In this document: positions 22,936 through 36,575 of the stretch, piece by piece
Layout of the letters: every line of letters starts with the position of its first letter
How positions within the stretch are numbered: position 1 is the stretch's first letter
DNA from: Gammaproteobacteria bacterium HGW-Gammaproteobacteria-1
GTDB taxonomy: Bacteria > Pseudomonadota > Gammaproteobacteria > Thiohalomonadales > Thiohalomonadaceae
Direction: 5' to 3'
DNA: 64,000 bases
Assembly: GCA_002840095.1 (NCBI GenBank)
Contig: PGZL01000007.1
Location: 169,375-233,374, forward strand
Notes under the pieces: generated by a model
What the model saw: only the letters and a program-made list of their open reading frames with translations
Told to the model about the DNA's origin: nothing
Database searches by the model: none
Program-made: the position numbers and the translations under genes

Positions 22936-23013
22936 ATGAAAGGGAACAATTCATCGGCCGCGATATCAGTCATATGGCCGTCTAATCATCGTTGGGCCCT
23001 CAGAAACGGATGA
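22936..23013 (+). CDS. 25-codon leader ORF crossing the first core site
   Basis: ATG at 22936 opens a 25-residue reading frame that runs through the GTTGGGC core site (22991-22997). It ends with a TGA overlapping the ATG of the first cassette gene (ATGA at 23010-23013). This layout resembles the short attI ORFs of class 1 integrons that boost translation of a first cassette lacking its own ribosome site. Its peptide has no recognisable domain. That it is translated is inferred from the overlap and from the lack of a good ribosome site for the cassette gene. Confidence 0.5.
   Translation: MKGNNSSAAISVIWPSNHRWALRNG
22991..22997 (+). other. Integron-type core site GTTGGGC (attI/first cassette junction)
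   Basis: GTTGGGC fits the GTTRRRY core consensus and is the exact reverse complement of the GCCCAAC box that opens the attC after the first gene, as expected for the two ends of one inserted cassette. No integrase gene lies to its left. Confidence 0.6.
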
Positions 23014-23387: not shown

Positions 23388-23478
23388 GCCCAACAAGTTC
23401 TTTCAGGCCGACGCGCCGGACGCTACGCCTAAATGTCATGCAGCCGCAGCGGCGCGCGTCTGAAGAAAGACGCTGGGC
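23388..23478 (+). other. attC-like recombination site 1
   Basis: The R'' box GCCCAAC (23388-23394) and an R'-like box GCTGGGC (23472-23478, one base off GTTRRRY) enclose imperfectly pairing arms (TTCTTTCAGGCCGACGCGCC against GGCGCGCGTCTGAAGAAAGA). The extra unpaired bases in the left arm are typical of attC sites. Confidence 0.7.
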
Positions 23479-23487
23479 AAATCAATC

Positions 23488-23910
23488 ATGACATTGCGCG
23501 TTTACCAAATGTTGGTAATCGGAAGCCTTCTCCTATATGGGATCTGGTGCTTGTTGCCGTACACGGGATGGACCACTACTGAGGACGCGTTTGCCGCGCT
23601 TCAATACGCAGGCGCCGGCGCATGGAATTTTACCTGGCACCCGCTGTTCTCTATAACTGAATTTGCAATCCGTGCTGCGGCCACTCTTGGGATGTTTCTG
23701 CTGTTAACTTGGGGGCGCAGCCTGTTTGTCGTTTGGCTGGCCGCGGGCGTTGTTATCGGCCCATTCAGCGGCGTGGCAGTGGTTCCGGCGGTCGATAACG
23801 CAGTTGGATACCTGAGCACACTTATCGACGGGGCGCTGGTGGTACTTTCATTTGCCCCACCAATAGGTCGCCTGTACAGGATAGACGGACATGCCAAACA
23901 TAGCGCTTGA
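23488..23910 (+). CDS. Hypothetical membrane protein (cassette gene)
   Basis: The 140-residue protein is mostly hydrophobic, with helices around 7-27, 58-78, 80-102 and 108-128, so about four membrane spans. It starts 10 nt after attC-like site 1. I do not recognise the family. The end reads IDGHAKHSA. A degenerate attC-like stem may follow it (about 23893-23985), but the core boxes are poor. Confidence 0.7.
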   Translation: MTLRVYQMLVIGSLLLYGIWCLLPYTGWTTTEDAFAALQYAGAGAWNFTWHPLFSITEFAIRAAATLGMFLLLTWGRSLFVVWLAAGVVIGPFSGVAVVPAVDNAVGYLSTLIDGALVVLSFAPPIGRLYRIDGHAKHSA

Positions 23911-23990
23911 AACGACGCCGATATGTGTTCCGCTCCTTTCATGCTGTGGCAGCAGCACTGCTTCAGCTCTTTCGCTATAGGTATCAAGAC

Positions 23991-24404
23991 ATGCGATGTC
24001 TTTTTCTTATTTTCTGCATCACTCCGGGCGTGAGCGCGGCCGCACCAGCATGCATCCCGGCATTCGATGAGTTTCTTTCTAAGTTCGAGGCTAATAGATC
24101 ATTTCAAGAAGAGAACATAATCCTTCCGTTAAAGCATTCCTTTGTGGACGCGGGAGCCGAACCAGAGCCAAAAGTAATTGATATACCCCTCTCAAAGAGC
24201 GAGGTGGTCGAGCGCTTGGCGCCAGTATTCCCTTCGCAAGCAGATCAGAAGAAACTCCAGCTTGAGAAACTCATCATGAGCCCAAGACTGGATGGAAGAA
24301 TTGTTCAGTTACAGAAACCTGACACCGGACACTTGCTCATCTACCACTTCCAGAAAATCGGTGAGTGTTGGAAGCTGGTCGAGTTCGAGGATACATCAAT
24401 ATGA
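23991..24404 (+). CDS. Hypothetical secreted protein
   Basis: The 137-residue product begins MRCLFLIFCITPGVSAAAP, a short signal peptide, followed by a soluble domain ending in RIVQLQKPDTGHLLIYHFQKIGECWKLVEFED, written here only as a description of a beta-rich C-terminal half. It resembles periplasmic proteins with a SnoaL/NTF2-like or DUF4348-like ending, but I cannot place it. An earlier in-frame ATG at 23907 lacks a signal peptide and overlaps the previous gene. Confidence 0.65.
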   Translation: MRCLFLIFCITPGVSAAAPACIPAFDEFLSKFEANRSFQEENIILPLKHSFVDAGAEPEPKVIDIPLSKSEVVERLAPVFPSQADQKKLQLEKLIMSPRLDGRIVQLQKPDTGHLLIYHFQKIGECWKLVEFEDTSI

Positions 24405-24437
24405 ATACCCATAAACATCACCTCCGGTTGACTCTCC

Positions 24438-24507
24438 GATATTTGGGGTCAGAGTAAAAACTCGAAGACATTTGAAGTCATGGCTTTTTACTCTTACCCC
24501 AAATATC
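24438..24507. repeat. Palindromic element (GGGGTCAGAGTAAA type)
   Basis: Two 23-nt arms (24438-24460 and 24485-24507) are inverted with two mismatches around a 24-nt loop. The TTTGGGGTCAGAGTAAA text resembles terminal hairpins that accompany RAYT-like transposases in many Gammaproteobacteria. No transposase is inside, so this is a stand-alone miniature element between a cassette gene and its attC. Confidence 0.75.
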
Positions 24508-24578
24508 TACGGATCGAGATTAGGGGAGACCAATTTGCCCCAACCAAAGAAGATTCTTATTGCTGGTAAGGGAGACAG

Positions 24579-24668
24579 GTCTAACCACCAGCTGAACCCG
24601 ACGCCGGAAAGCGCAGTGGGCGCTTCGCGGAGGGCTCGGCAGCGGGGCGGGTTAGCGGTACGTTAGAG
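24579..24668 (+). other. attC-like recombination site 2
   Basis: GTCTAAC (R'', 24579-24585) and GTTAGAG (24662-24668) bound an imperfect palindrome containing GAACCCGACGCC and GGGGCGGGTTAGCGG. The R' box is the exact complement of the CTCTAAC that opens attC-like site 3, as expected when both belong to the same next cassette. This is the most canonical attC in the window. Confidence 0.82.
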
Positions 24669-24681
24669 GAAAAAGAAGAAC

Positions 24682-25167
24682 ATGCAGAGTAATGACATGA
24701 GCGTCACCGAATTGAAAACATTTGCTGGTTCCGGTGGCTACGAAACCATTTGGCACCCTTATCATGATGGGAGCACAAAGTTAGCTGGCTTTAACCGTTG
24801 GGCCGCGATCCTTGGTGTCCAGTGGTTCTTCTACCGAAAACTTTACATGTTTGGAGTAGGCGCGCTGATTGGAGATGTATTGCTACTCGGCGGAACGCCG
24901 CTCATTGCCACCGCAGCATTCGGCCCCAAAAATGGTGCGGGGATTGCCCTAATCCTGGGATGTTTGTTCCTTTGGAGGTCCATTCTTGGATTCGCGGCAA
25001 ACGTGCTCTATTACCGAAAGGCTGTAAAGACAATTAACGTCCTATCGGAGCTTAACGTAACCAATGAAGAATATTTGCAACGGCTTGCGACAGCAGGTGG
25101 GGTTAGCATTGGTGCAGTATTTGGCCTTCTCTTCGCCGGGATTCTTGCAAGATTCGCCCTTTCATGA
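24682..25167 (+). CDS. DUF2628-like membrane protein (cassette gene)
   Basis: The 161-residue protein has the FNRWAAILGVQWFFYRKLYMFG pattern of DUF2628 (only part of which is diagnostic), then helices around 60-80, 88-108 and 135-155. It starts 13 nt after attC-like site 2 and its stop is 55 nt before site 3. DUF2628 proteins are small inner-membrane proteins of unknown role, common in gene cassettes. Confidence 0.8.
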   Translation: MQSNDMSVTELKTFAGSGGYETIWHPYHDGSTKLAGFNRWAAILGVQWFFYRKLYMFGVGALIGDVLLLGGTPLIATAAFGPKNGAGIALILGCLFLWRSILGFAANVLYYRKAVKTINVLSELNVTNEEYLQRLATAGGVSIGAVFGLLFAGILARFALS

Positions 25168-25222
25168 GATCGAGACATGGAAGCGTTCCTAGCCGGATAT
25201 TTAAGCGTTCTCCTATCCGAAG

Positions 25223-25328
25223 CTCTAACTATCGGCTGCAGTCCGACCCGCAAACGCGGAGCAACTTCCATGTTCGTTTTTGCGCTCGACGCGCCGCTTT
25301 TGCGGGGCGGCTGAGCTCAGCGTTGCAC
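25223..25328 (+). other. attC-like recombination site 3
   Basis: The R''-like CTCTAAC (25223-25229) pairs with the GTTAGAG that starts this cassette at 24662. The arms CTGCAGTCCGACCCGCAAA and TTTTGCGGGGCGGCTGAG fold on each other. The R' box reads GTTGCAC (25322-25328), a looser fit to GTTRRRY. Confidence 0.7.
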
Positions 25329-25374
25329 CAAGAGCCCAAAGGAAAGCGCGGCGCAAATGGAAGCAGATAAACGC

Positions 25375-25575
25375 ATGAATAATACAACAGAGCGCCGTCC
25401 GTTCCTAAAGAGTCGCGCCTTGGTTGTGTTCTGGATCGTTTTCTGTGTGGTGATGGGCGGTGGTCGCGTGTGGCTGTGGTCTCAAGGAGTTGGGAATATT
25501 TACGGCCTCTACTTCGGGATCGCGTGGTTCATTCCAGTGCCATTCTTGCTCTGGGAGTACTTCCGCCGTGCATAA
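25375..25575 (+). CDS. Small two-helix membrane protein (cassette gene)
   Basis: The 66-residue protein has a charged N-terminus and two hydrophobic segments (about 15-37 and 42-60). The stop codon lies within the R'' box of the next attC-like site, a common cassette arrangement. An in-frame start at 25357 would add six residues. I do not recognise a family. Confidence 0.6.
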   Translation: MNNTTERRPFLKSRALVVFWIVFCVVMGGGRVWLWSQGVGNIYGLYFGIAWFIPVPFLLWEYFRRA

Positions 25576-25659
25576 CGAATACTTGAGCCCGACACCTTGG
25601 AAGCTCCGCCTCTCGCTTGGGCGTCTTGCAGTGGACGCAGGCCAAGAAACACGTTGGCC
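25570..25659 (+). other. attC-like recombination site 4
   Basis: GCATAAC (25570-25576) and GTTGGCC (25653-25659) enclose CTTGAGCCCGACACC and GGACGCAGGCCAAG, which pair imperfectly. The boxes fit the consensus less well than site 2, so it may be decayed. It begins inside the stop of the preceding gene. Confidence 0.6.
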
Positions 25660-25692
25660 CCACGACAACTTTCATCACATACAGAAACCATT

Positions 25693-26406
25693 ATGAATAA
25701 TTCCTATATTGCCAGCGTCATTCTATTGCTCATTTTATGCAGCACCACGGTAGCCAGCGCTGAATCGACATTCACCTTTGAGTCAGTAGTAACGCTCGAC
25801 GAAATGTCGTCTCTGATTCATGCGAAAGCACCGCTTGGCACTTCTCGCGCAAATATACGGCGCATGTTTGTGGAACAAGGGCGCGCAACACTAAAGATCA
25901 AGGCCGATGATCCTAGTATCGAGAAGTACGTCTACGATATCGATCTATGCCATTACTATATTTGGCGCTGGAACATATCGGCTGACTACGACGCCAGCGG
26001 TCAACTACGCCAAGCATACGTAAACGGGAACATTGTATTTTCGAACGGCCATCCAAAGAAGGTTGTTCCCAAGGTCGCGAAAGAAGGAAAAAAGGCGTCG
26101 ATATATCGGGTCCAACGCCCCAGGCCAGAAGCTTACAAGGGTGAGAGTTCGCTGGGGTTCTTACTCTTTGACCGCGACAGCGATCCGAGCACTACAGATG
26201 ATCAAGCCCTCGTTGGCGCCGGTCCCAGCCGTGCCGACCCAATGAATATGGGCAAGCTTATCGCCTATACAGACGTCGAGCCCTGGCGCTCTATTTTCGA
26301 CTTTGATGCTGCTGACCGCATCATGCCTTATCCGGGCAGTTGCGATGGAGTAGACATGCTGATGAGCGCACAGAAAAACAAAGTTGACGGAGGGATTAAT
26401 AAATGA
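25693..26406 (+). CDS. Hypothetical secreted protein
   Basis: The 237-residue protein starts with a signal peptide (MNNSYIASVILLLILCSTTVASA). The mature part has DLCHYYIWRWNISADYD and SIYRVQRPRPEAY, giving a mixed soluble fold I do not recognise. The end overlaps the next gene by 4 nt (ATGA). It follows attC-like site 4 by 33 nt, so it would be the gene of the fifth cassette, but I could not find a good attC after it. Confidence 0.7.
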   Translation: MNNSYIASVILLLILCSTTVASAESTFTFESVVTLDEMSSLIHAKAPLGTSRANIRRMFVEQGRATLKIKADDPSIEKYVYDIDLCHYYIWRWNISADYDASGQLRQAYVNGNIVFSNGHPKKVVPKVAKEGKKASIYRVQRPRPEAYKGESSLGFLLFDRDSDPSTTDDQALVGAGPSRADPMNMGKLIAYTDVEPWRSIFDFDAADRIMPYPGSCDGVDMLMSAQKNKVDGGINK

Positions 26407-27020
26407 CCAGTTGCTCGAAACTTAGTCCATCCGTCCACCGGCCGGGGCCGACGTCGGGGACGTTGTCGCCCCCCTCGGCAGCCAGGCAGTGCCGCTGCGC
26501 CGGCACAGCCATTCGATCACTCTTACTTACTACCCTGTTACTGATCAGTACACCCTACGCAGTCGCCGCCGATGTCGAATGCACGGAACGTCCAGAATGC
26601 TGGCCGGAAGGTAGTGCCATGCATACCGGGCTACTAAGGCGTCAAATTGAAGACAAATTGCGCAAGCAGCTGCAACAACGACATGAGGAACTCGTCGCCC
26701 TTATTTCCACCAAGCACGTCAACAATGGTACTGAGCACCTCGATGACCAGCGACTGGTAGAAGCTGTTCAAGCTCAGCACAAGTCATGGCATCAATTCAA
26801 GGACAATGAATGCGAGCTTATCGGCGCACTTTCTGGAGGCATGAGCACTTGGCAGTCCGCCAGGGCCGTAGAGTGCGAAATGAATCTGACAAGCCAGCGC
26901 CTGAGGCGAACACAGCACGCAATCCGATGCGTAAAGCGAATTGCACCTGAAGACCGTCAATTCAATCAACAAACTTGTCTGTACCAATTAGCCCCATTGG
27001 CGGTTCCACTTGAAAAGTAG
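26403..27020 (+). CDS. LprI-like (DUF1311) secreted protein
   Basis: The 205-residue product has an unusual Pro/Ser/Cys-rich N-terminal stretch (about 1-38), then a hydrophobic signal-like segment (SLLLTTLLLISTPYAVAA, about 39-56). The C-terminal half has the pattern of the lysozyme-inhibitor LprI-type domain: WHQFKDNECELIGALSGG, then ECEMNLTSQRLRRT and a last Cys pair. LprI-like proteins can inhibit lysozyme, but many are uncharacterised. The 26440-26520 DNA is much richer in GC than its surroundings, suggesting an inserted or misread start region. The true start may be internal. Confidence 0.7.
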   Translation: MTSCSKLSPSVHRPGPTSGTLSPPSAARQCRCAGTAIRSLLLTTLLLISTPYAVAADVECTERPECWPEGSAMHTGLLRRQIEDKLRKQLQQRHEELVALISTKHVNNGTEHLDDQRLVEAVQAQHKSWHQFKDNECELIGALSGGMSTWQSARAVECEMNLTSQRLRRTQHAIRCVKRIAPEDRQFNQQTCLYQLAPLAVPLEK

Positions 27021-27099
27021 CCCCAACCCACAGTCCCACCACACAGAAATCTGGACCGATTTGTTTACCATTAACTTGCAGTGACAACGGACATCCATC

Positions 27100-27384
27100 G
27101 TGGCCAAGTGCGTTATATGCAAATCCCCGGTGCCATTCTTGGCATACCTGAAATACCTGATCTCCAACAGGGCTTATCAATGCGCCAATTGCAAGACGAC
27201 CTATGACGACCATATTCTGCACAAAGGCGTTGTTGCCATATTCCTTGGCCTTCTCCTGTTTCACCGCATTCTGTTTGGGGACATGATTCACACCATGACG
27301 GATGCTGCTGTATTCGTTCTGGCATGGCTTTCATTGATCATGCTGGGCATATATCTGCATTACCGATATAAATTCAGGGGCTAG
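27100..27384 (+). CDS. Small zinc-ribbon membrane protein
   Basis: The 94-residue protein has CVIC (4-7) and CANC (28-31), a likely zinc ribbon, then two membrane helices (about 42-60 and 66-88). The start is GTG. The family is not recognised, but CxxC zinc ribbon plus two helices is common in small stress or membrane-quality proteins. Confidence 0.65.
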   Translation: MAKCVICKSPVPFLAYLKYLISNRAYQCANCKTTYDDHILHKGVVAIFLGLLLFHRILFGDMIHTMTDAAVFVLAWLSLIMLGIYLHYRYKFRG

Positions 27385-27413
27385 AGCTAGCTCAACCTGG
27401 ACGGGAGAACACT

Positions 27414-27905
27414 TTGATTCACCGCGAATCCAGAAATCGACTTGCAGAGGCACTAAGGCAATACTTGTCCGGACGCATCACGAACGATGAACTGGATGCT
27501 ATTGAAGTCGACTGGCGTGATCGCGGGGCCGTTGCTGTTAAAGAGATGGCCTGGCACCTGTATGACGACCTGCGCACCCATCATGTAGAAGGCAATCTCA
27601 CACGCGGTTCTGAAGAGAGAAGGACGGTCGCTCGCTGGATTGCGTTCTTGCACTCCGACAGGGAGTATCTATGGCCTGAGTATTCCTTCATGCAATTCGT
27701 GAATTGGCCCATGAACCTGCTGACTCTCGGCTGGTGGGGAAGAATGAAAAAGAGGAAGTGGGAGCAGTTTTTGGAGGCCGGGGATTTCAACGTATGGCCG
27801 TTCTGCACCAAGGAAGAGCTTGAATCTGTTTTACAAAAGCCGCAGCTTCTTGCAGGAAAACGCGTCCAACAAGACGTTCCGATAGACGCCGAATCCGACA
27901 AATAG
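27414..27905 (+). CDS. Hypothetical soluble protein
   Basis: The 163-residue helical protein contains WRDRGAVAVKEMAWHLYDDL and a Trp-rich middle (FVNWPMNLLTLGWWGRMKKRKW). The start appears to be TTG, with GGGAG upstream. I have no functional call. It converges with the lipoprotein gene at 28026. The gap between them holds a GGCGCC/GGCGCC stem but no T-run. Confidence 0.65.
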   Translation: MIHRESRNRLAEALRQYLSGRITNDELDAIEVDWRDRGAVAVKEMAWHLYDDLRTHHVEGNLTRGSEERRTVARWIAFLHSDREYLWPEYSFMQFVNWPMNLLTLGWWGRMKKRKWEQFLEAGDFNVWPFCTKEELESVLQKPQLLAGKRVQQDVPIDAESDK

Positions 27906-28025
27906 CGGAGTGCCGTGCCCGCCGCGATACGGCGCCCATGGGGCGCCCTATGACAGGATACTGTTGCGGAACACATAGGGCTCCTGTCCAGTTAGAACGT
28001 TCGCCATCTGAAGCTTTTATGCAGA

Positions 28026-28739
28026 TTATTTCAGAATGACACTGTCGGGCTTGAAGAATGAACCCAGCTCAGTCTTGGGGATAAGCACGGAGACGGGGCA
28101 ATCCGGTTCTCCGTGGATTGGTGGCAGCCCTCTCAGTTCTATGCCTTGAGCGGTAATTAATGCATTACGGGCGTTTTCAAATGGTGCGCAGCCTGAGATA
28201 TCCTCTTCCGGTAGTTTTCTCAGCTTCTCTTCCAGCAACTGATTGGCGAGTTCAATAAATCGCTTCTGAGATGTTGCATCAAGAAACTCCTCATTGACTG
28301 TCAGCGATGCGCCGGTTTCCAGATTGTAATTGGCGGTGCCAGAGGTGCTATCCGGTGATGGCATCGACTCGCACATCCAGGTCGCTTCGTAGTAGAAGCT
28401 AAGCGCGCGTCCGTTGCTGTAGATCGGTTCGGCCGTAAACGCCTGATCGCCTGGGCCCTGGCAGGAATATCTGTCGACCAACGCATCAATCTGTTTGTTT
28501 ACCGAATCGAGTGTCTTTTTTCCGGCTTGTATGAGTTGCGGGTAGGTAAGGGATGTTCCCCAGTAACCTACGGGAGATGAGGAGGAATCAAGCCGCTTCT
28601 CGACAGTAACAACCTTGAATTCATTACTCTCGGTAGCATTGGATGGTGAGTTACAAGAAGTACAGCCGGCCGCCATAACCAGTAGCAGGGCTTTGAGGCA
28701 TATTCTCTCTCTCGTGCTTATATTTCTGGATTCTTCCAC
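28026..28739 (-). CDS. Putative lipoprotein with DUF3298/RsiV-like C-terminus
   Basis: The 237-residue protein has a hydrophobic N-terminus ending MAAGCTSC, which offers a lipobox Cys. The mature domain contains NLETGASLTVNEEFLDA and ends CPVSVLIPKTEL, as in RsiV-like DUF3298 proteins, which include lysozyme-binding members. That link is tentative. Note that an LprI-like gene lies about 1 kb away. It is on the minus strand, opposite to the cassettes. Confidence 0.65.
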   Translation of the reverse strand: MEESRNISTRERICLKALLLVMAAGCTSCNSPSNATESNEFKVVTVEKRLDSSSSPVGYWGTSLTYPQLIQAGKKTLDSVNKQIDALVDRYSCQGPGDQAFTAEPIYSNGRALSFYYEATWMCESMPSPDSTSGTANYNLETGASLTVNEEFLDATSQKRFIELANQLLEEKLRKLPEEDISGCAPFENARNALITAQGIELRGLPPIHGEPDCPVSVLIPKTELGSFFKPDSVILK

Positions 28740-28776
28740 TATTCTCTTCCTTGAGTTTTTGCATACGGGCCAATAA

Positions 28777-29166
28777 TTATTGGCAATCGGTATCTGACTT
28801 CTTTTTCATGAAAATCAATTCAATAACCTGGATTTGGCCGTCATAATCCATAGCGAAACCGTCCGTAGCTTTGCCAAGTTGTTGACCAACTATCTGGGCG
28901 AATACTTCTTCGTGAGGTTCCGTGGTTAGCTTGCTGTATTTTTTCGCCATAAGCTCAAGCATTTTATCTGAGCCAGATACCCAATATACCTTTTCCCCGC
29001 CGCAAGGTTGGAAGCTGTTTGCTTCGTGCCCATAGATATAGTGCCCGGACAATGTCGAACCGTCGGCACCGGCTTGAATTGACGCCGCCGCTACGGAACC
29101 ACATGCCAGGGGAAGTGAATAGAGAAGAAGTGTAAGCAAATATCTGCTCGATCTTTTCGTATTCAA
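28777..29166 (-). CDS. Hypothetical secreted protein
   Basis: I place the start at a TTG (29166) because it gives a clear signal peptide (MNTKRSSRYLLTLLLYSLPLA) and follows AGGTGG. A GTG at 29232 would add a non-signal extension. The mature part has SGHYIYGHEANSFQPCGG followed by KVYWV, a pattern seen in NlpE/META-like envelope proteins, though I cannot assign it firmly. It is 37 nt upstream of the lipoprotein gene and probably co-transcribed. Confidence 0.6.
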   Translation of the reverse strand: MNTKRSSRYLLTLLLYSLPLACGSVAAASIQAGADGSTLSGHYIYGHEANSFQPCGGEKVYWVSGSDKMLELMAKKYSKLTTEPHEEVFAQIVGQQLGKATDGFAMDYDGQIQVIELIFMKKKSDTDCQ

Positions 29167-29245
29167 TTGCCCACCTGATTGCTGTCGACGGGTTTGCTCT
29201 TTCACCCTGCCGAGTATATCTCCGCGCTGCACATGATCGGTGATG

Positions 29246-29312
29246 GATTCCGGGGACAGTATACCGATACAGGCCGAGGCTTCCGGCCAATAGGTATACT
29301 GTCCCCGATTAC
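29246..29312. repeat. Palindromic element (GGGGACAGTATACC type)
   Basis: The arms CGGGGACAGTATACC and GGTATACTGTCCCCG are inverted around an inner GGCC/GGCC stem. It ends 2 nt before the stop codon of the XRE gene. Such GGGGACAGTATACC ends usually mark RAYT-like transposon termini. No transposase is inside. Confidence 0.8.
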
Positions 29313-29313
29313 C

Positions 29314-29610
29314 TTATTGCTTTTCCCTGGCTATATCGCCCGATATCCTGCGCAGCAGCTGCGCTCCCAGTTCGGCGGGATCGGGCTCGCGCATCAGGTC
29401 CAACAGCGTCAAGCCGAAGGCCCCTGCCAGCCGCTCCACGCTATCCAGGCTGACGTTGCGCCGGGCCTGTTCGATGTCGCCCACGTAGGAGCGATCCAGC
29501 TCCGCCGCCTCGGCCAGCGCCTCCTGTGACCAGCCCCGCATCAGCCGCAGGACGCGAACATTCTGCGCCAACAGCCTCCGTGCCGCGCCCCCACCCATGG
29601 CGGCGGTCAT
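29314..29610 (-). CDS. XRE-family helix-turn-helix regulator
   Basis: The 98-residue protein is almost entirely an HTH_3 domain: RVLRLMRGWSQEALAEAAEL, then DRSYVGDIEQARRNVSLDSV and LAGAFGLTLLDLM. I chose the ATG at 29610. The longer frame to 29766 is Pro/Arg-rich and unlike any repressor. Its GC content is higher than the rest of the island. No obvious partner toxin is adjacent. Confidence 0.8.
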   Translation of the reverse strand: MTAAMGGGAARRLLAQNVRVLRLMRGWSQEALAEAAELDRSYVGDIEQARRNVSLDSVERLAGAFGLTLLDLMREPDPAELGAQLLRRISGDIAREKQ

Positions 29611-29924
29611 TGGCTTGTACCAGTAGGCAGGCTGCGGGCGCCCGGCCCCTTGGGGCCGGCATGGCATGGTGGAACGTGGGATGGCGGCGGGGGTTTGGGG
29701 ACGACAGGCCGCAGGCTGCTGGCCTGGGCAGGCATCTCCCCGCCCTCGGTGTACTGCCTGTCCCACAGGGAAAGGGAATAAAAGGTGGTTCCATTACGAT
29801 CGGCGGTCCCGTCCATAAGCCCTCCTGGCTCTTTGTGGGGCCGCAAACGAAAACGGCCCCGATTACGGGGCCGCTCGATGAGCCGAGATCCAGCTGGGGC
29901 CGGACCCGGTGATATACTCTCGCG

Positions 29925-30004
29925 CAGCCCCAAGGTCTGGTCTTGTCAGTCTTGGGGTTAGCCGCCCGGATGGTGTTAGCGCACCACCGGGCGGCGCTTT
30001 TTCT
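29925..30004 (+). ncRNA. Candidate small RNA with two hairpins and intrinsic terminator
   Basis: An extended -10 element (TG-A-TATACT, 29910-29918) precedes a stem CCCCAAG/CTTGGGG (29928-29957). A long GC stem GCCGCCCGG-TGGTG / CACCA-CCGGGCGGC (29961-29995) then ends in GCTTTTTCTT. No plus-strand gene ends here, so the terminator is orphaned unless it closes a short RNA of about 80 nt. There is no good -35 box. The RNA is inferred. It lies about 315 nt from the start of the divergent XRE gene. Confidence 0.45.
29961..30004 (+). terminator. Strong intrinsic terminator with no upstream gene
   Basis: A stem of about 14 pairs with one bulge is followed by TTTTTCTT. The nearest plus-strand gene upstream ends 2 kb away, which is why a short RNA is proposed. 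The rest of 29611-30340 shows no credible CDS, only another GGCCCC/GGGGCC stem near 29858-29873. Confidence 0.75.
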
Positions 30005-30340
30005 TGATGCCTTAAAGTGTATGAATAGACAGTGGATGTCAAGCATGAATTTACACGCCGTAGATGCAGGTTGGTTTAGCCTGTTCAGGCGTATCCCCTG
30101 GGATTTCTTGTACGAACTCCTGCGCCAGCCCTCCCCCATCCCGCGCCTGCGGTTGGATTTTGCCCTGAGATGGAGTTAGATTAGGCCCACACCCCATCCG
30201 AAGGACCGGCGCATGGACATCGAAGGACTGAATCTCCCCCCAACACCGCCGGCTGACGCTACGACACCCGCGCCGCCCCTAAGGCGCGCAATTCAATCCC
30301 CTCTATCTCTATATAGCGTGCAACCCTGATGGGTGGCCTA

Positions 30341-30399
30341 GCCCAACAACGTTTATCCGCTATGCTGCGCACGGCGGATAAATGCTTATTAAGTTGAAC
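30341..30399 (+). other. attC-like recombination site 5
   Basis: GCCCAAC (30341-30347) and GTTGAAC (30393-30399) both fit the integron core consensus and enclose GTTTATCCGC and GCGGATAAATGC, which pair. At 59 nt it is a short attC. The next gene starts 4 nt after it. Confidence 0.72.
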
Positions 30400-30403
30400 G
30401 TAA

Positions 30404-30676
30404 ATGGATAGCGTTTTTGTAGTTCAGCATCTTCATCGGCTTCCTCACGGGGAAGATAGCGTCATGTTTATCGGTGTCTATCGCACAAGAAGTCATGCTG
30501 AGGAAGCGGTAAAGCGACTTTCGCTACAGCCTGGTTTCTCAAAACACCCATATGTAGTTGATTTTGATAAATACGACGATGATCAAGGATTCCACATCTC
30601 CGAATATCCGCTAGACAAAGATCACTGGACAGAGGGTTTCGTAACTATGGTCGGTGATCGGGAGATCGAAGAATGA
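30404..30676 (+). CDS. Small cassette protein (DUF7336-like, tentative)
   Basis: The 90-residue soluble protein reads FVVQHLHRLPHGEDSVMFIG early and YPLDKDHWTEGFVT near the end. The latter block recurs in small proteins often found in gene cassettes (I associate it with DUF7336, tentative). It starts directly after attC-like site 5. A decayed attC may follow (about 30690-30805, arms AAGGCGACTTTCGGCCAG and CTGGCTTCGCC), but the core boxes are not convincing. Confidence 0.75.
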   Translation: MDSVFVVQHLHRLPHGEDSVMFIGVYRTRSHAEEAVKRLSLQPGFSKHPYVVDFDKYDDDQGFHISEYPLDKDHWTEGFVTMVGDREIEE

Positions 30677-30923
30677 GAACCCAGCCCTTGTTAACCACCC
30701 TACAAGGCGACTTTCGGCCAGAAGAGACATTGTCCGATGCGTCAATATGACTGCAAGACAGTTCCTACAGACCAGCACAAAACATGCTGGCTTCGCCTGT
30801 GTTAGTGGATAAACCCTACACCGACGGGGCACGCCATAAGCGGAACAACACCAGACAGGGGCGTAAATCCCGATATGAATGCGCTACCGTTTTTTGAGCG
30901 TCAGCTGTTTAATGGAGAACAAA

Positions 30924-31412
30924 ATGTCATCTCTAATGAAAACATTACGACCAATATCTGCCGCGGCTATTTTCATATTACTTTCAGCCTGCTCTCAAAA
31001 CGCGAACCCTGTTGATTCAGATGCTAAAGATTCTCTGTTGACGGGATTGCGCGCAATCAATGGGGAGTATAAATGGAATGATGAACTGAAGCGTTTTACT
31101 TATTCAGAAAAGAATCTCATTGAAAAAATACTATCAACCAGAGAACCGGAACTTGCGGTTAATGCACTTGTTGATTGCCTTGATGATCTAACGTTGACCA
31201 ATTCGACTTTGCGAGGCGAAAAGCTGGCCACGGGGATTATTTGCTACGAAGCTCTTTCTCAAATGGCTTATTACGAACCCACGACAAAAGAAGGCGATAT
31301 TGAAAAGAACTGGCCTGGACATGTCGTGCCGACGGCAACACCAGGCGAGCTAAAGGAAGCAAAGTTAGCCTGGAAGGCGGTTTTAGACTCAAAGTCATAC
31401 ATATTTTTATAG
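30924..31412 (+). CDS. Putative lipoprotein of unknown function
   Basis: The 162-residue product has a lipoprotein signal (ISAAAIFILLSAC), so the mature protein would begin at that Cys. The soluble part is helical and has a VDCLDDLTLTNSTLRGEKLA segment, similar in feel to HEAT-like or immunity-type lipoproteins, without a firm family. I chose the ATG at 30924, with GGAG 7 nt upstream. Earlier in-frame starts at 30912 and 30879 are possible. Confidence 0.7.
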   Translation: MSSLMKTLRPISAAAIFILLSACSQNANPVDSDAKDSLLTGLRAINGEYKWNDELKRFTYSEKNLIEKILSTREPELAVNALVDCLDDLTLTNSTLRGEKLATGIICYEALSQMAYYEPTTKEGDIEKNWPGHVVPTATPGELKEAKLAWKAVLDSKSYIFL

Positions 31413-31434
31413 CTCATGGAGAGAGGGCATACCA

Positions 31435-31527
31435 ATGTCAAACATACCAACATCAATAAATGGCGTCACAGTCGAATTTGCGACAACTGTGAACAAGGAA
31501 GTTGAACAGGCAATGATTAATGGGTAG
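31435..31527 (+). CDS. 30-codon ORF coupled to the next gene
   Basis: ATG at 31435 is preceded by GGAGAGAGG and opens a 30-residue frame whose stop overlaps the start of the next gene by 8 nt. The peptide includes SINGVTVEFATTVNKEVEQA, which reads like ordinary coding sequence. It could be a remnant of a larger gene or a translational leader. No family is recognised. Confidence 0.4.
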   Translation: MSNIPTSINGVTVEFATTVNKEVEQAMING

Positions 31528-31882
31528 ATCGAAGGAAGTGGATGCGTACATCGCCGCGCAGCCCCCAGAAACGCAGCGAGCGCTTGAGGAGATTCGTTCA
31601 TATATTTGGCTCGCAGCGCCGAACTCTTCCGAACTCTTAAACTACAACATCCCGGCCTTTGCTTTGATCGAAGGTGGCAAGCGCGACCAGCAGATCATGA
31701 TTGCAGGATACGCTAAACATGTTGGATTCTATCCACATCCGGACGTGATAGAGGCGTTCTCCGACCGGCTTACAGGATACAAGTTCGCCAAGGGCTCAAT
31801 TCAATTCCCCGTAAACAAGCCTGTCCCAAAAGAACTTGTCATTGAAATGGTGAAGCACAGGCTGTCCCAACTGAATAAATGA
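31520..31882 (+). CDS. DUF1801 / YdhG-like protein
   Basis: The 120-residue protein matches the DUF1801 pattern: VDAYIAAQPPETQRALEEIR, NYNIPAFAL, HVGFYPHPDVIEAF and GSIQFPVNKPVP. Members resemble a frataxin-like fold and are sometimes called iron chaperones, with little direct evidence. It is a full-length soluble protein. Its end overlaps the next gene by 4 nt. Confidence 0.88.
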   Translation: MGRSKEVDAYIAAQPPETQRALEEIRSYIWLAAPNSSELLNYNIPAFALIEGGKRDQQIMIAGYAKHVGFYPHPDVIEAFSDRLTGYKFAKGSIQFPVNKPVPKELVIEMVKHRLSQLNK

Positions 31883-32244
31883 AGAAACGTCACGTGACAT
31901 TATTGGGCTTGATTCTTGTATTGGCGGCAATGTTTGCGATGTCGCAGCTTAAATCAGATGAGCTTGTTCTAAGCGCAAGCTATCAAAAGCTCGCGTGCGA
32001 GAACTGCTATCACATGACAGTTGAAAAGAGCATCGATCCAGGCCTGCTGGGCGAAACCATTATTCCTGTGTCAAAGACAGTGGATATTGAGAAGATGATT
32101 GATGGTATTTCTCTAACTAATGAGCATGTATGCTTACGGGGTCGACTTCATAGCTTCAATTTCAATTTGTTCAGGATTGACCCTGACGGGAAGAAGTTCG
32201 AAGTCCTTTCGCAAGAAAAGGCGGAGGCCTGCGCATCAATTTGA
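31879..32244 (+). CDS. Hypothetical membrane-anchored protein
   Basis: The 121-residue protein has an N-terminal helix (about 6-24) serving as signal or anchor and a small extracytoplasmic domain with four Cys (ACENC, HVC, AC), suggesting disulfides. It overlaps the DUF1801 gene by 4 nt, so the two are co-translated. The family is unknown. Confidence 0.65.
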   Translation: MKKRHVTLLGLILVLAAMFAMSQLKSDELVLSASYQKLACENCYHMTVEKSIDPGLLGETIIPVSKTVDIEKMIDGISLTNEHVCLRGRLHSFNFNLFRIDPDGKKFEVLSQEKAEACASI

Positions 32245-32410
32245 ATTTGGTGGACAACCGTGATCAGGTTGAGGGGCTTATGCTTTCTGGACCGCAGCCA
32301 CAGTCCGGTGGATAATGCCGCCCAAGGCCACGCCTTCACACAGGAAAGGCAAAAGACAAGACCCTCAAAATTTGGCCCATAGATACTTTCAACAGGAGGA
32401 CAAATAGACA

Positions 32411-32758
32411 ATGGCAGATAGTGGAACAGCCGCAGCTGCGGGGCTACTTGGTATCGCTGGTCTCGGATTGCTCCTAGCGAAGCCCGAGGTACGGGATGTG
32501 TGGTATCACAACAAAGAGGTCAAATTGGATGGTTATCGCTTTATTGCATGCAGATTCGATGGGTGCAAATTGGTCCTAACTTCAACGAACTTTGAACTCG
32601 ACGCGTGCTACATAGACCCTACGACAACAGTCGTCTACGGAAATGATGTTCTGCGCCCGATTAAGCTGTTCAATAGTAGAAATGAATGGATGTACGCCGA
32701 AGCCCCTTACTTTGCGCCAATTCGCAACGCAAACGGCACCATAACGATCAAGGGCTAA
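32411..32758 (+). CDS. Hypothetical protein upstream of the GIY-YIG pair
   Basis: The 115-residue protein has a hydrophobic start (AAAAGLLGIAGLGLLLA, about 6-22). A repeat-like stretch with alternating aromatic/Cys positions (YRFIACRFDGCKLVL, then ELDACYID) hints at a small beta solenoid or sandwich. AGGAGG lies upstream of the ATG. It is 6 nt from the next gene, so both are likely one transcript. No known family is assigned. Confidence 0.65.
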   Translation: MADSGTAAAAGLLGIAGLGLLLAKPEVRDVWYHNKEVKLDGYRFIACRFDGCKLVLTSTNFELDACYIDPTTTVVYGNDVLRPIKLFNSRNEWMYAEAPYFAPIRNANGTITIKG

Positions 32759-32764
32759 GAGGTA

Positions 32765-33322
32765 GTGCTTGTGAACGTTGATACAAAATTAGAAGCTGGA
32801 ATTCAAATAACTCCCGAGCGGAGTCATGTGTATCTGTTCATGCTGGGATTTGGGGCACTACTCTCGTTAACTGCCGGCTTTGTCTTCCTTTGGCATAAGC
32901 CGGAATTGTGTTGGATACCTTTCGCGTTCGTAGGCGTATTTTTAGCGTCTGGTTGGAGCGTGTGGTCAAGGTCGCATGCGAATATAGATATGGCCGGAGC
33001 GACCCCAACGACCATTTCTAACAGCCTGACAGGTGTTTCCGTTAGTACGGACACCCGTGCATTAGCATCTCCCGAGAGCGTTCAATCTCTGGAAAAGATA
33101 TTTTCTGTTTTAGGTCATCGAGAACCTCTCCCTGCACCGGATGGGTTGTTGGATTCGTCCGGGAACCCAATCCCAGGAACCGAGTGTGCAGCTGCTCAGA
33201 AAATCGACGAAATTAACGCAACAGTTGCAGAACGGATTGTGCAGGCTGCACGTTTGTTTTCTGGTGGATCTCGAAACGGCCTTGTTGAGCATCAACCATT
33301 TGTCGACCCTGCGACGGAATAA
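32765..33322 (+). CDS. Hypothetical two-helix membrane protein upstream of the GIY-YIG pair
   Basis: The 185-residue protein (GTG start, with a second GTG two codons later) has two membrane helices (about 18-40 and 47-66) and a cytosolic or periplasmic tail that is Ser/Thr-rich. The tail ends with a helical part (AAQKIDEINATVAERIVQAARL). It sits 63 nt before the first DUF4041 gene. I do not recognise it. Its position suggests membership in the same operon. Confidence 0.65.
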   Translation: MLVNVDTKLEAGIQITPERSHVYLFMLGFGALLSLTAGFVFLWHKPELCWIPFAFVGVFLASGWSVWSRSHANIDMAGATPTTISNSLTGVSVSTDTRALASPESVQSLEKIFSVLGHREPLPAPDGLLDSSGNPIPGTECAAAQKIDEINATVAERIVQAARLFSGGSRNGLVEHQPFVDPATE

Positions 33323-33385
33323 TGATAGGGACGGAATAGCCGTGGCCAGAGCAAGGATGCCAGATTAATAAGGATAGACTTTGAA

Positions 33386-34753
33386 ATGTTAACCTCCCCA
33401 GATCAGATTCCTTACTTTATCGCTGTCATTTCATTCGCGCTCAGCATATCGGCAATTGTTCTTTATGCTCGCGCATTAGCACTTAGGAAGCGCATCGAAA
33501 CCATGGCGGCAGAAATGGCAAAAAAGCCCGTTTCAGCGCTTGTCGAAGAGTTAGAGAAGGAGAAGCTGCCTGTCTTGGAAAAGCTCCAAAATGGCAATTC
33601 CATACTTTCCAAACTGATTGAAGCTTATGCTAAAGCTGAGGCTCAAGTGAGCCAAATCAAAGCCGGACTTCCCCCGCCCAACTTTAAAGTCGATGACGAT
33701 GAAAGCCTAAAGTCTGCCATTCGCGAGATCCGTGGCAAGCAACACGAACTCATCACCAGCCAACGCGCAACAAGCTCTATGTCGAACTGGGAGTGGTTTG
33801 GCAGCAAGTCAGACGGACAAAAACTCATAAAAACCTACAATAAGTTGATGATTAGCGCACTCAACGCCGAATTTGACATGGCTAGGGACAAAATGCGGCA
33901 CGGCAGCTACGATACCGCGATCAATAAGCTCAGAGCGAGCATCAAATCGCTGGAAGAATTGGCCGCAACAGTCAACGTAAAGATTTCATCAGAATACCTT
34001 TCCACGAAAGAGGAAGAGTTAAAAATATGGCATACCGATCTGGCACGAAAGCAAGAAGAGAAAGAAGCCAGAACTAAGCAAAAAGCGATCCTCCGAGAGC
34101 AAAACAAAGCCCTTGGACGTTCGTCGGATGACGACGAAGACGATGACGACGAAGTCGGTATCGAAAGCCAGCTGGCAACCTGCTCCGCAGAACTCGAAAA
34201 GGCTCGCGAACTGGCAATGCAGATCGCTGGAGATGATTTAGCGAAGCTGGAATTGAAAATTGAGAAGGTCGAAGAGGAAAAGCGGAACCTCGAAGCTAAA
34301 CTTGAACGTGCCACATCCCAGGCTCAAATCACCCGCGCCGGCTACATCTATGTCATTTCCAATATAGGCAGCTTTGGAGAAGGTGTATGTAAAATAGGCA
34401 TGACCCGACGCCTAGAGCCCATGGAACGAGTGGTAGAACTTGGCGACGCAAGTGTCCCATACCGCTTTGATGTGCACACCCTAGCTTTTGTGGACGACGC
34501 TCCAAGGATAGAAAAGGCCATACACAAGGTGTTCAGCTCTAGACGTGTCAATAAGGAGAATCACCGTAAAGAGTTCTTCTTCGTCTCACCAGAGGAAGCA
34601 AAGGCCGTTATGGACAATATTGGCATCAAATCGTCCTGGTACTATGAATGCGATGCCAGGGAGTACCGGGAATCAGAGATGATGAGGGAAGCGATGCTTG
34701 TAGAACACCGTAGTCACAGAGCGGGCTCCATCGAGCTTCCGGACGCGATATAA
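33386..34753 (+). CDS. Membrane-anchored DUF4041 + GIY-YIG (T5orf172) protein, copy A
   Basis: The 455-residue protein starts with a membrane helix (about 9-29) and a coiled-coil (about 33-95). A DUF4041 domain follows (about 125-235; FDMARDKMRHGSYDTAINKL, EYLSTKEEELKIW), then an acidic Asp/Glu tract (about 248-258), a second coiled-coil (about 265-310) and a C-terminal T5orf172/GIY-YIG domain. The last shows GYIYVISN, CKIGMTRR, EKAIHKVF and KEFFFVS, so the GIY, YIG, Arg and Glu positions look intact. It is probably a membrane-tethered nuclease or nucleic-acid-binding protein. The gene is 13 nt from its paralogue. Confidence 0.85.
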   Translation: MLTSPDQIPYFIAVISFALSISAIVLYARALALRKRIETMAAEMAKKPVSALVEELEKEKLPVLEKLQNGNSILSKLIEAYAKAEAQVSQIKAGLPPPNFKVDDDESLKSAIREIRGKQHELITSQRATSSMSNWEWFGSKSDGQKLIKTYNKLMISALNAEFDMARDKMRHGSYDTAINKLRASIKSLEELAATVNVKISSEYLSTKEEELKIWHTDLARKQEEKEARTKQKAILREQNKALGRSSDDDEDDDDEVGIESQLATCSAELEKARELAMQIAGDDLAKLELKIEKVEEEKRNLEAKLERATSQAQITRAGYIYVISNIGSFGEGVCKIGMTRRLEPMERVVELGDASVPYRFDVHTLAFVDDAPRIEKAIHKVFSSRRVNKENHRKEFFFVSPEEAKAVMDNIGIKSSWYYECDAREYRESEMMREAMLVEHRSHRAGSIELPDAI

Positions 34754-34766
34754 GGAAAAGCAAACC

Positions 34767-35996
34767 ATGAACACGGCCATCTCATCGGCAGCCCTCATCG
34801 CCGCCTTGGTTGCTCTGATCGTCGCTGCACTATACCGCAAGAAACTGCAGGCACAGCACGACACACTAATGATCGACTACAGACCTGTAGACGCTTTAAA
34901 AACAGAGGTATTCACTCTCTCTAAGACCTACTCTGACCTACAGGAAAAGTACAAAGTCAAACGCAGCGCCCTTCAAACCTTTGAGGGCATTATTAGTACC
35001 TACAACCTGGGAGTGGGCACCATCGATGTCAGCACCTACACGCCCATCCACGACACACGGGACGTCTCCGTCTTGGAGGCAGAGCTAGAGAAGGTGAAGG
35101 AGAAAGCCAAGACGATTGTAAGCGCCAAACGCGCCTGCATATCTCACTTACCTTCAAATATTGCCATAAATGGCCGCAAGGGCGCTGCCAAGACCTTTAT
35201 TAACCGCGAAATAAGGTTGCGCATCAGATGCCTGGACAACGAAGTGAAGGCCGCAATCGCTGCGGCAGAGTGGAATAACATCAATCGCCTCATAGAACGC
35301 GTCCAAAACAAGTTCCAGGAGATCAATGACGAGAGCAAGCTGGTTAAAATCTTCCTGGAGAAGGACTATCTGGATATCAAGGTACTTGAGCTTCGCCTGA
35401 ATTATGAGATCAAACAACTAAAGACTGACCTCAAAGAAGAGGAAAGAGAGGAGCGCCAACGGATCCGGGAAGAAGAGCGTGATGAAGAACGCGTAAAAAA
35501 GGAACTTGAGAAAGCTGAACGTGATCGGGCACGAATGGAAAAGCTGGTGGAGCAGGAGTTGGCCAAAATCAGTGAAGCGACAGACGCTCAGAAAGAAAAA
35601 CTGGCTCTTCATCAAAAAGAGCTGGAGCTGTTAAGAGCGAAAGAGGCGAGAGCGATATCGCTGGCCCAGCAGACACGCGCCGGCTACGTGTACATCATCT
35701 CAAACACAACCTCATTCGGAGAGGGCATCTGCAAAATAGGCATGACCAGACGCCTGGATCCAAATGACAGGGTCAAAGAGCTAGGTGACGCTTCTGTACC
35801 AGAATTCTTCACTGTGCACGCATTTATCTATACAGATGATGCGCCTACACTGGAGAAGCACTTCCATGATCACTTTAAAAATCTCCGGGTAAATCTCGTC
35901 AATCGCAGAAAGGAGTTTTTCCGCCTGGCACCCGAGGATGCGCTTAAAGCACTGAAAAATTACGAAGGGAATTACAATTTAGAGGCCACCGGGTAG
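34767..35996 (+). CDS. Membrane-anchored DUF4041 + GIY-YIG (T5orf172) protein, copy B
   Basis: The 409-residue paralogue of the preceding gene has the same plan: membrane helix (about 4-23), coiled-coil, DUF4041 (about 135-215; VKAAIAAAEWNNINRLIERV, KDYLDIKVLELRLNYE), a very charged helix (about 220-300), and the GIY-YIG-like domain (GYVYIISN, CKIGMTRR, EKHFHDHF, KEFFRLA). The nuclease domains are much more alike than the rest, so the pair arose by old duplication or selection for a heteromer. GGAAAAG precedes the ATG. Confidence 0.85.
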   Translation: MNTAISSAALIAALVALIVAALYRKKLQAQHDTLMIDYRPVDALKTEVFTLSKTYSDLQEKYKVKRSALQTFEGIISTYNLGVGTIDVSTYTPIHDTRDVSVLEAELEKVKEKAKTIVSAKRACISHLPSNIAINGRKGAAKTFINREIRLRIRCLDNEVKAAIAAAEWNNINRLIERVQNKFQEINDESKLVKIFLEKDYLDIKVLELRLNYEIKQLKTDLKEEEREERQRIREEERDEERVKKELEKAERDRARMEKLVEQELAKISEATDAQKEKLALHQKELELLRAKEARAISLAQQTRAGYVYIISNTTSFGEGICKIGMTRRLDPNDRVKELGDASVPEFFTVHAFIYTDDAPTLEKHFHDHFKNLRVNLVNRRKEFFRLAPEDALKALKNYEGNYNLEATG

Positions 35997-36109: not shown

Positions 36110-36415
36110 CCCCACGCCGCGTGCGCGCAGCGCACGCCACCTCCGCGATGCCGGCAGGCGAGCTGCCTTTGACTTTCATCCCCTTTGGCTCGCCGAGTAG
36201 CGCAGCTCAAAACGGACAGGCCCGCAGGGGGCGCGCCATGGATGGCGCGTCTTTCGCCGTCAGGACAGGGACGTCCTGTCGGCGAAACCCCGTTTTGAGC
36301 GAGCAACGCAGGGAACCCGAAGGGCGAGACATCGGGGCGGCCTTTCTTTTGGTTACTTTTCTTTGGCCGTGCAAAGAAAAGTGACCCGCGCGCGGGGCGG
36401 CCCCCCGCATCAAAA
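36110..36415. repeat. Dispersed ~300-bp repeat, right boundary of the accessory island
   Basis: It is inverted relative to the 22.35-22.72 kb copy and in the same orientation as the window-edge copy. It shares the CAGGACGTCCCTG hairpin, GGCGCGCCATGGATGGCGCG, and CATCGGGGCGGCC followed by the AAAGAAAAGT inverted pair. A single GGGACAGATTTATTT arm, typical of RAYT-type termini, lies just left at about 36093. The 35997-36109 stretch shows nothing else. Confidence 0.88.
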
Positions 36416-36441: not shown

Positions 36442-36557
36442 TCATCGCGGCATAGCCGCTCCCACAGTCCTCGCCGCACAAAACCATTCGCGGCATAGCC
36501 GCTCCCACAGTCCTCGCCGCACAAAACCATTCGCGGCATAGCCGCTCCCACAGTCCC
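36442..36557. repeat. 43-bp tandem REP-like repeat (about 2.7 copies)
   Basis: TCGCGGCATAGCCGCTCCCA begins at 36445, 36488 and 36531, giving a 43-bp period. The hairpin GCGGCATAGCCGC with a CTCCCACAG tail resembles Pseudomonas-type REP units. It abuts the 3' end of motB. Confidence 0.88.
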
Positions 36558-36575
36558 CCCTCCCCCTTCAAATAT

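What the first reader, a model, noticed from the sequence alone, without database searches (positions are those of the whole stretch)
33386..35996. Tandem membrane-anchored DUF4041 plus GIY-YIG proteins
Seen: two adjacent genes, 13 nt apart, each with N-terminal membrane helix, coiled-coil, DUF4041 and a C-terminal T5orf172-type GIY-YIG domain with the GxxYxxxN, KIGMTRR and Glu positions present. The nuclease domains are much more similar than the rest. Known: T5orf172/DUF4041 proteins occur in phages and mobile islands. Inferred: a membrane-tethered heteromeric nuclease that cuts incoming DNA at the envelope, i.e. a candidate anti-phage or plasmid-exclusion system. I do not know of a characterised tandem version.
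Basis: partly seen in the sequence, partly recalled or inferred. Interest (0 to 1): 0.72.

Follow-up and report, generated by a model that had tools for sequence, protein, structure and literature searches.

The report
Paired SNIPE-type membrane anti-phage nucleases
Two neighbouring bacterial genes each encode a membrane-anchored DNA-cutting protein of the recently described SNIPE anti-phage family, and the same two-gene arrangement recurs in a few other bacteria, which suggests a two-part version of a defence known so far as a single protein.

Summary
A (33386-34753, 455 aa) and B (34767-35996, 409 aa) each carry an N-terminal hydrophobic helix, DUF4041, coiled coil and a GIY-YIG domain with catalytic residues. 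The basic kind is known: both match PADLOC PD-Lambda-1 over most of their length (337 and 333 bits), which is SNIPE, shown in 2026 to sit in the inner membrane and cut phage DNA during injection (PMC13190303). I found no description of the pair. The same A-then-B order, 0-13 nt apart, is in four further genomes (in one, A is cut at a contig end). A-type and B-type each form a fully supported clade that holds none of 53 or 70 single homologues. B-type lacks the C-terminal tail that A-type and the singles have, and has Glu where 71 of 71 singles have Phe, but keeps the catalytic residues. The similar nuclease domains are ordinary for the family. Best reading: a two-gene SNIPE variant, probably a heteromer. 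Heteromer and defence activity are inferred. Plasmid exclusion is not supported.

The parts
33386..34753 (+). Gene A (455 aa), SNIPE-like membrane-anchored GIY-YIG nuclease, A-type
   Evidence: (PADLOC PD-Lambda-1 337.1 bits, residues 41-441)
33407..33463 (+). A: predicted N-terminal transmembrane stretch (residues 8-26), no Lys/Arg before it and 4 after it, which suggests C-terminus inside
   Evidence: hydropathy; helix 5-45
33842..34009 (+). A: DUF4041 domain (residues 153-208)
34340..34621 (+). A: T5orf172/MUG113-type GIY-YIG nuclease domain (residues 319-412)
   Evidence: strands and helices of the model
34511..34513 (+). A: catalytic Glu codon (E376, aligned to SNIPE E414)
34631..34690 (+). 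A: C-terminal tail (residues 416-435), of the kind seen in single-gene SNIPE homologues and missing in B-type
34754..34766 (+). 13-nt gap between A and B, beginning with GGAAAAG
34767..35996 (+). Gene B (409 aa), SNIPE-like membrane-anchored GIY-YIG nuclease, B-type
   Evidence: (PADLOC PD-Lambda-1 332.8 bits, residues 44-399)
34776..34832 (+). B: predicted N-terminal transmembrane stretch (residues 4-22)
   Evidence: (helix 2-81)
35223..35381 (+). B: DUF4041 domain (residues 153-205), 26.9 bits against a cut-off of 27
35682..35960 (+). B: T5orf172/MUG113-type GIY-YIG nuclease domain (residues 306-398)
   Evidence: model
35802..35804 (+). B: E346 codon, a position that is Phe in 71 of 71 single homologues and Glu in 5 of 5 B-type proteins
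35853..35855 (+). B: catalytic Glu codon (E363, aligned to SNIPE E414)

Best explanation
A and B are a two-gene variant of the SNIPE anti-phage system. Shown by sequence: both are SNIPE homologues with a hydrophobic anchor, DUF4041, a long helical linker and intact GIY-YIG active-site residues; they are adjacent and co-directional; the A-B unit recurs in other genomes as two separate clades; B-type has changed nuclease-domain positions and no C-terminal tail. Inferred from the characterised relative: both sit in the inner membrane facing the cytoplasm, bind the entry machinery (tape measure protein) and incoming DNA through DUF4041, and cut phage DNA as it is injected, with membrane anchoring sparing the chromosome. 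Inferred from the conserved pairing: A and B work together in one complex, for example each supplying one GIY-YIG active site so that both strands of the entering duplex are cut, with the surface altered in B forming the contact to its partner. I put SNIPE-like function of at least one protein at about 0.85 and the heteromer at about 0.5.
For: PADLOC PD-Lambda-1 matches over residues 41-441 of A and 44-399 of B. The SNIPE E414 equivalent is Glu in all 62 proteins aligned and in 71 of 71 singles. N-terminal hydrophobic stretch in all 9 pair proteins whose N-terminus is available. Same A-B order and 0-13 nt spacing in five genomes. A-type clade 100/100 and B-type clade 100/100 in the careful tree of 62 proteins; both whole again among 70 singles in a quick tree. 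No A-type or B-type gene was found alone in the samples taken. Shared departures of B-type from positions invariant in singles. Between window and L036 copies, third codon positions differ more (0.55 for A, 0.51 for B) than first and second (0.13-0.20), so both genes look conserved as proteins. SNIPE mechanism: PMC13190303.
Against: Only five pairs, and in L038 A is incomplete (bases 1-77 at the contig end do not match A), so an intact pair is seen in four. No test of physical interaction: no complex could be modelled. SNIPE homologues are mostly single genes, and SNIPE works as one gene in E. coli, so a partner is not needed in principle. No clear defence island around the pair in the window. 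Outside the nuclease A and B are no closer to each other than to singles. Whether they arose by tandem duplication or by joining of two lineages is unresolved (AU p = 0.162). Defence was not tested.
Confidence: 0.55

Rival explanations
1. Two independent SNIPE nucleases stacked side by side. Each acts alone, with different DUF4041 and N-terminal regions aimed at different phages or host entry proteins, and they stay together because they are co-transferred.
For: Outside the nuclease A and B are about 16-19% identical on average, no closer to each other than to singles. [quoted passage not shown] Catalytic residues are intact in both.
Against: Both clades were found only together in the samples taken, and the order and close spacing hold in all five. 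B-type has shared nuclease-domain changes that none of 71 singles shows.
Confidence: 0.3
2. B (or A) is mainly a regulatory partner: a tail-less nuclease-like subunit that holds the other in an inactive state at the membrane until a phage tape measure protein arrives.
For: SNIPE in the membrane is described as auto-inhibited (PMC13190303 section 5), and how its nuclease is shielded is left to future work there. B-type lacks the tail and has Glu at a Phe position in 5 of 5.
Against: The active-site residues of B are kept, which a pure regulator would not need.
Confidence: 0.1
3. A mobile-element or homing-endonuclease gene pair without a defence role.
For: T5orf172/GIY-YIG domains occur in phage homing nucleases (search listing); low-GC block in an otherwise GC-rich window; relatives in viral contigs, phages and plasmids.
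Against: Hydrophobic anchor and DUF4041, long match to a tested defence family, no integrase or phage structural gene among the island proteins scanned, no pair seen in the viral-contig, phage and plasmid searches (a few plasmid records with two places were not looked at).
Confidence: 0.05

Closest known systems
SNIPE (PD-Lambda-1), Escherichia coli; PMC13190303 (abstract, sections 5, 9, 10 and passages seen); first found in PMC9519451 (passages seen)
   Same: N-terminal membrane helix, DUF4041, long helix, C-terminal GIY-YIG nuclease, catalytic Glu equivalent to E414; PADLOC PD-Lambda-1 models match A and B over most of their length.
   Different: Two adjacent genes of two separate clades in place of one. 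A and B are 35% and 38% identical to the phage-borne E. coli copy (annotated PD-lambda-1, L081) over the aligned part. B-type lacks the C-terminal tail and has changes at positions invariant in singles. The window's A has an acidic stretch breaking the long helix (residues 245-254 have pLDDT under 50).
PD-Lambda-1 of Streptococcus thermophilus, PMC12322248 (passages seen)
   Same: Same family; of two homologues tested there, one gave strong defence and the other none.
   Different: No pairing is mentioned in the passages seen.
T5orf172/MUG113-type GIY-YIG proteins, including phage homing nucleases (PMC10448857, search listing only)
   Same: Nuclease domain family.
   Different: A and B add a membrane anchor and DUF4041.
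Slx1 structure-specific endonuclease (PDB 7cq4, 7cq2, 4xm5; that it is a GIY-YIG DNA-repair enzyme is recalled)
   Same: Slx1 entries are among the weak fold matches of both models (E 0.36-2.2, so suggestive only).
   Different: No DUF4041 or membrane anchor (recalled).

Membership tests
SNIPE / PD-Lambda-1 | GIY-YIG nuclease domain with the catalytic Glu (E414 in E. coli SNIPE) | tested here: met
   E376 in A, E363 in B; Glu in 4 of 4 A-type, 5 of 5 B-type, 71 of 71 singles
SNIPE / PD-Lambda-1 | DUF4041 domain before the nuclease | tested here: met
   A 36.2 bits; B 26.9 bits against a cut-off of 27, but B matches the PD-Lambda-1 models through this region
SNIPE / PD-Lambda-1 | N-terminal membrane anchor (66% of homologues in the paper have one or two predicted) | tested here: met
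   hydropathy only: A 2.33, B 2.63, Lys/Arg only on the C-terminal side; 46 of 53 singles reach 1.6
SNIPE / PD-Lambda-1 | Long match to the family's defence models | tested here: met
   PDLC03976: A 337.1 bits over model positions 85-480 of 491, B 332.8 bits over 93-450; the first 84-92 model positions are not matched
SNIPE / PD-Lambda-1 | One gene is enough for defence | not testable with these tools
   here the genes are paired in all five genomes found; whether one acts alone needs the bench
SNIPE / PD-Lambda-1 | Direct defence, cleavage of phage DNA during injection, association with the tape measure protein | not testable with these tools
   shown for E. coli SNIPE in PMC13190303, inferred here
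Sequence pattern of single-gene SNIPE homologues (my own criterion, not a published definition) | C-terminal tail, and Gly/Phe at the positions of SNIPE G366 and F397 | tested here: not met
   A-type: tail 4 of 4, G366 Gly 4 of 4, F397 position Tyr/Tyr/Phe/Phe. B-type: tail 0 of 5, G366 Gly 0 of 5, F397 position Glu 5 of 5. This is why it is called a variant.
Free-standing phage homing endonuclease (T5orf172) | Lies in a phage or intron, no membrane anchor (recalled criterion) | tested here: not met
   both have a hydrophobic anchor; chromosomal block next to motAB, no phage gene among the proteins scanned

The most novel reading that the evidence does not exclude
A two-component SNIPE: A and B form an obligate membrane heteromer in which B is a specialised, tail-less subunit. 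The heteromer puts two different GIY-YIG active sites on the entering phage duplex, and removal of either gene abolishes defence.
Probability: 0.4. Interest if true: 0.6.

Novelty: new variant of a known kind. Interest (0 to 1): 0.42.

Why it matters
SNIPE is a recent example of defence that tells self from non-self by place (the membrane at phage entry). [quoted passage not shown] how one such domain makes double-strand cuts is, in my view, also open. A natural variant that splits the job between two clades, one lacking a tail that the single proteins keep, gives a genetic handle on both questions. It also means that a defence finder that reports two PD-Lambda-1 hits here could miss that they may form one unit.

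Tried and rejected
Recent duplication or gene conversion of the nuclease domains: rejected as an explanation of their similarity, since A-B identity there (59% mean) equals A-single (58%) and B-single (58%).

A and B as sister clades: the best tree separates them, but holding them together is not rejected (p-AU 0.162); left open. The careful tree warns of one long row (L079) and of two other long-branch groups meeting; the later quick tree left L079 out and places A with weak support.

Island as an integron: stretches between island genes looked attC-like to me by eye, but a strict scan with a recalled attC consensus found none (0.6 expected in shuffles). Rfam at gathering thresholds found nothing in the window.

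Island as an element bounded by the inverted 175-nt repeat: rejected, because the repeat has 23 matches across the genome. A clean empty site was not found: motAB is conserved in G001 and G003 and none of the 11 island proteins used as queries matched there, but the other flank gene (21344-22324) was not in the stretches fetched either.

Defence island: of 2 neighbours and 10 further island proteins scanned against PADLOC, one matched, a helix-turn-helix protein (29314-29766) resembling restriction-modification control proteins (best 64 bits). Of 8 neighbours of other pairs, 3 matched: a helicase-like protein in part, a sigma-54 regulator, and a small regulator.

Structure: single-chain models gave mean pLDDT 83.7 (pTM 0.39) and 83.1 (pTM 0.48). 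Fold searches gave no match at E 0.001 or better. A profile search of solved structures gave 15 sequences at E up to 1, best 0.063, coiled-coil and other helical chains, so nothing usable. No complex could be modelled, and no model file was in the Python box.

Pair in phages, plasmids or viral contigs: not found. Plasmid totals show two (A) and three (B) places beyond one per record; the rows listed (60 of 196 records) show one such record, a Lactococcus plasmid; none was followed up.

Full report
Observation. Pfam finds T5orf172, MUG113 and DUF4041 in both; DUF4041 in B is 26.9 bits against a cut-off of 27. BLASTP between them gives 33% identity over 377 columns, concentrated in the nuclease. 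Each begins with one hydrophobic stretch with Lys/Arg only on its C-terminal side, which fits the orientation shown for SNIPE. A search of the genome (4.23 Mb, 70 contigs) with A found these two places only. The genes lie at the right-hand end of a low-GC block (48-57% GC in the 2-kb steps from 22 to 36 kb, against 61-70% in the rest of the window) of small proteins, most without a known family, next to motAB.

What the family is. Both proteins match the PADLOC PD-Lambda-1 models, at 337 and 333 bits, over all but the first 84-92 model positions and the end, and PHROG 1847. PD-Lambda-1 was renamed SNIPE in a 2026 Nature paper (PMC13190303; I saw the abstract, sections 5, 9 and 10, and passages). 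It is an inner-membrane protein with a transmembrane helix, DUF4041 and a GIY-YIG nuclease. E414A and deletion of DUF4041 abolish defence; without the membrane helix it cuts the host chromosome. It cleaves phage DNA during injection and associates with ManYZ and the tape measure protein. It does not block plasmid transformation. A word search of that paper's main text for tandem, dimer, oligomer, paralog, adjacent and multimer found nothing on paired genes. Searches for DUF4041 (3 papers), PD-Lambda-1 or SNIPE defence (14 papers) and PD-Lambda-1 with tandem (4 papers) listed no paper whose title or abstract start speaks of a tandem version. Of the other papers listed I opened passages of PMC9519451 and PMC12322248 only; supplements and preprints were out of reach.

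The pair is a conserved unit. One scan of the species-genome contigs with the A+B alignment, limited to contigs that hold one of two short peptide patterns, gave 4 relatives from 84 pattern matches. Three carry both genes in the same order: L036 (a Pseudomonadales MAG; A 68%, B 76% identity by tblastn), L037 (an uncultured bacterium; A 40%, B 48%) and L038 (Marinobacter iranensis; B 73%, and only the last 135 residues of A, because the contig ends there, with its first 77 bases not matching A). The fourth, a Desulfocapsa MAG (L039), has a single homologue. Sampling of genomes then gave one more intact pair, G1068. The gap between the genes is 13, 8, 0, 11 and 11 nt (window, L036, L037, L038, G1068). 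In samples of whole genomes, the centre genome included, matches at E 0.001 or better were found in 3 of 39 (relatives), 35 of 397 (phylum), 21 of 369 (class), 2 of 20 (order), 16 of 341 (order of L038's genome), 7 of 154 (class of L037's genome), 13 of 293 (order of L036's genome; largely the same genomes) and 24 of 343 (phylum of L037's genome). Many of the weaker matches look like other GIY-YIG or coiled-coil proteins. No adjacent pair beyond the five was seen. G1238 and G422 have two places on different contigs, G201 two pieces of what looks like one broken gene, and G1510 two pieces of one open frame. Limits: in several genomes only part of the first-look candidates was scored (for example 3 of 6), the samples are drawn from larger groups, and of the 53 singles of the tree six have under 600 bases on one side of the ORF in the fetched stretch, so a partner could be out of view (L007, L013, L014, L060, L077, L142). 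In viral contigs 41 and 5 relatives were found, none paired (two-copy check), and an A-type query found none. Phage records with a match were 37 for A and 40 for B, one place each. Plasmid records were 190 with 192 places for A and 196 with 199 places for B; the records with more than one place were not followed up.

Two clades. From the fetched loci I kept ORFs scoring at least 100 bits, one per set with identical last 300 residues (75), added the two window proteins, and dropped 15 rows that were fragments (among them the A fragment of L038), a row with an internal stop, or near copies. That left 9 pair proteins and 53 singles. In a careful maximum-likelihood tree the four A-type proteins form one clade (100/100) and the five B-type another (100/100); in both the window groups with L036, and the deeper orders are compatible, not identical in resolution. 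Adding 18 more singles and leaving out one long-branch row, both clades remain whole among 70 singles in a quick tree. A and B are not sisters in these trees, but the data do not reject that they are (p-AU 0.162), so duplication in place or joining of two lineages both stay open. Between the window and L036, codon positions 1 and 2 differ at 0.13-0.20 and position 3 at 0.51-0.55 in the two genes, so both look conserved as proteins.

Asymmetry. Active-site positions (Tyr322, Lys336, Gly338, Arg341, Arg342, His364, Glu376, Asn389 of A) are the same in all A-type, B-type and the 53 singles. B-type departs elsewhere. The C-terminal tail, marked by the Ala at SNIPE position 463, is in 70 of 71 singles and 4 of 4 A-type, but in 0 of 5 B-type; in the one other single, L062, the tail sequence lies behind the ORF in another reading frame. 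L038's B has a C-terminus of similar length but unlike sequence. SNIPE G366 is Gly in 71 of 71 singles and 4 of 4 A-type but 0 of 5 B-type. F397 is Phe in 71 of 71 singles, Tyr or Phe in A-type, and Glu in 5 of 5 B-type. D400 is Asp in 71 of 71 singles and 2 of 5 B-type. A-type in turn has Ser/Thr at N218 (Asn in 63 of 71 singles) and Gln at E283 (Glu in 67 of 71). These counts follow lineages, so each is probably one change, not several independent ones. The stretch around DUF4041 (A residues 95-215) is somewhat more positive in B-type (net +4 to +10) than in A-type (-3 to +1) or singles (mean 1.6, sd 3.5); this is weak.

Mechanism. Shown here: architecture, intact catalytic residues, conserved pairing, clade structure and the shared B-type changes. 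Inferred from SNIPE: inner-membrane location, action on DNA at injection, and binding of phage entry proteins by DUF4041. Inferred from pairing: the two proteins act together, most simply as a heteromer placing two active sites on the incoming duplex. The main rival, two stacked SNIPEs with different targets, is not excluded, and the finding that A and B are no closer to each other than to singles outside the nuclease fits it too. What favours joint action is that neither type was found alone in these samples, and that B has changed positions that all 71 singles keep.

Structure. Single-chain models are fairly confident locally (mean pLDDT 83.7 and 83.1) with low pTM (0.39, 0.48). Slx1 entries appear among weak fold matches. 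No complex could be predicted here.

Verdict. Observation confirmed; interpretation partly supported. A new variant of a known kind: a two-gene SNIPE, rare in the samples taken and conserved in order.

Noticed in passing
window 22534-22708 and 36144-36317: A repeat of about 175 nt flanks the low-GC block in inverted orientation and has 23 matches across the genome; short ORFs in it are probably not genes.
   Followed up: partly
L147 (G001:C1:1937000-1955000), ORF segment from 9402, and L004: A same-genus genome has a remnant of a SNIPE-like gene (last part of the nuclease domain and tail only), with copies of the same dispersed repeat just beside it.
   Followed up: partly
window 22400-33386: Low-GC block of small proteins; Pfam hits among those scanned are to LprI, DUF1801, DUF2628, DUF7336, weak Arv1, NlpE_C and YwiC, and an HTH protein.
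   Followed up: no
window 36445-36573: Three head-to-tail copies of a 43-nt repeat (two identical, one 74%) just past the dispersed repeat.
   Followed up: no
L036 9337-12726 (- strand): Near the pair in L036, facing it, is a 1129-aa protein with an RNase H-like domain and helicase-type AAA domains, with partial PADLOC matches to MkoA/MkoC.
   Followed up: no
L038 1-77: The contig of Marinobacter iranensis ends inside A, and its first 77 bases do not match A; either an assembly break at a repeat or an interrupted gene.
   Followed up: no
L062 after 5897: A single SNIPE homologue on a viral contig whose ORF stops right after the nuclease domain while its tail sequence follows in another reading frame.
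   Followed up: partly
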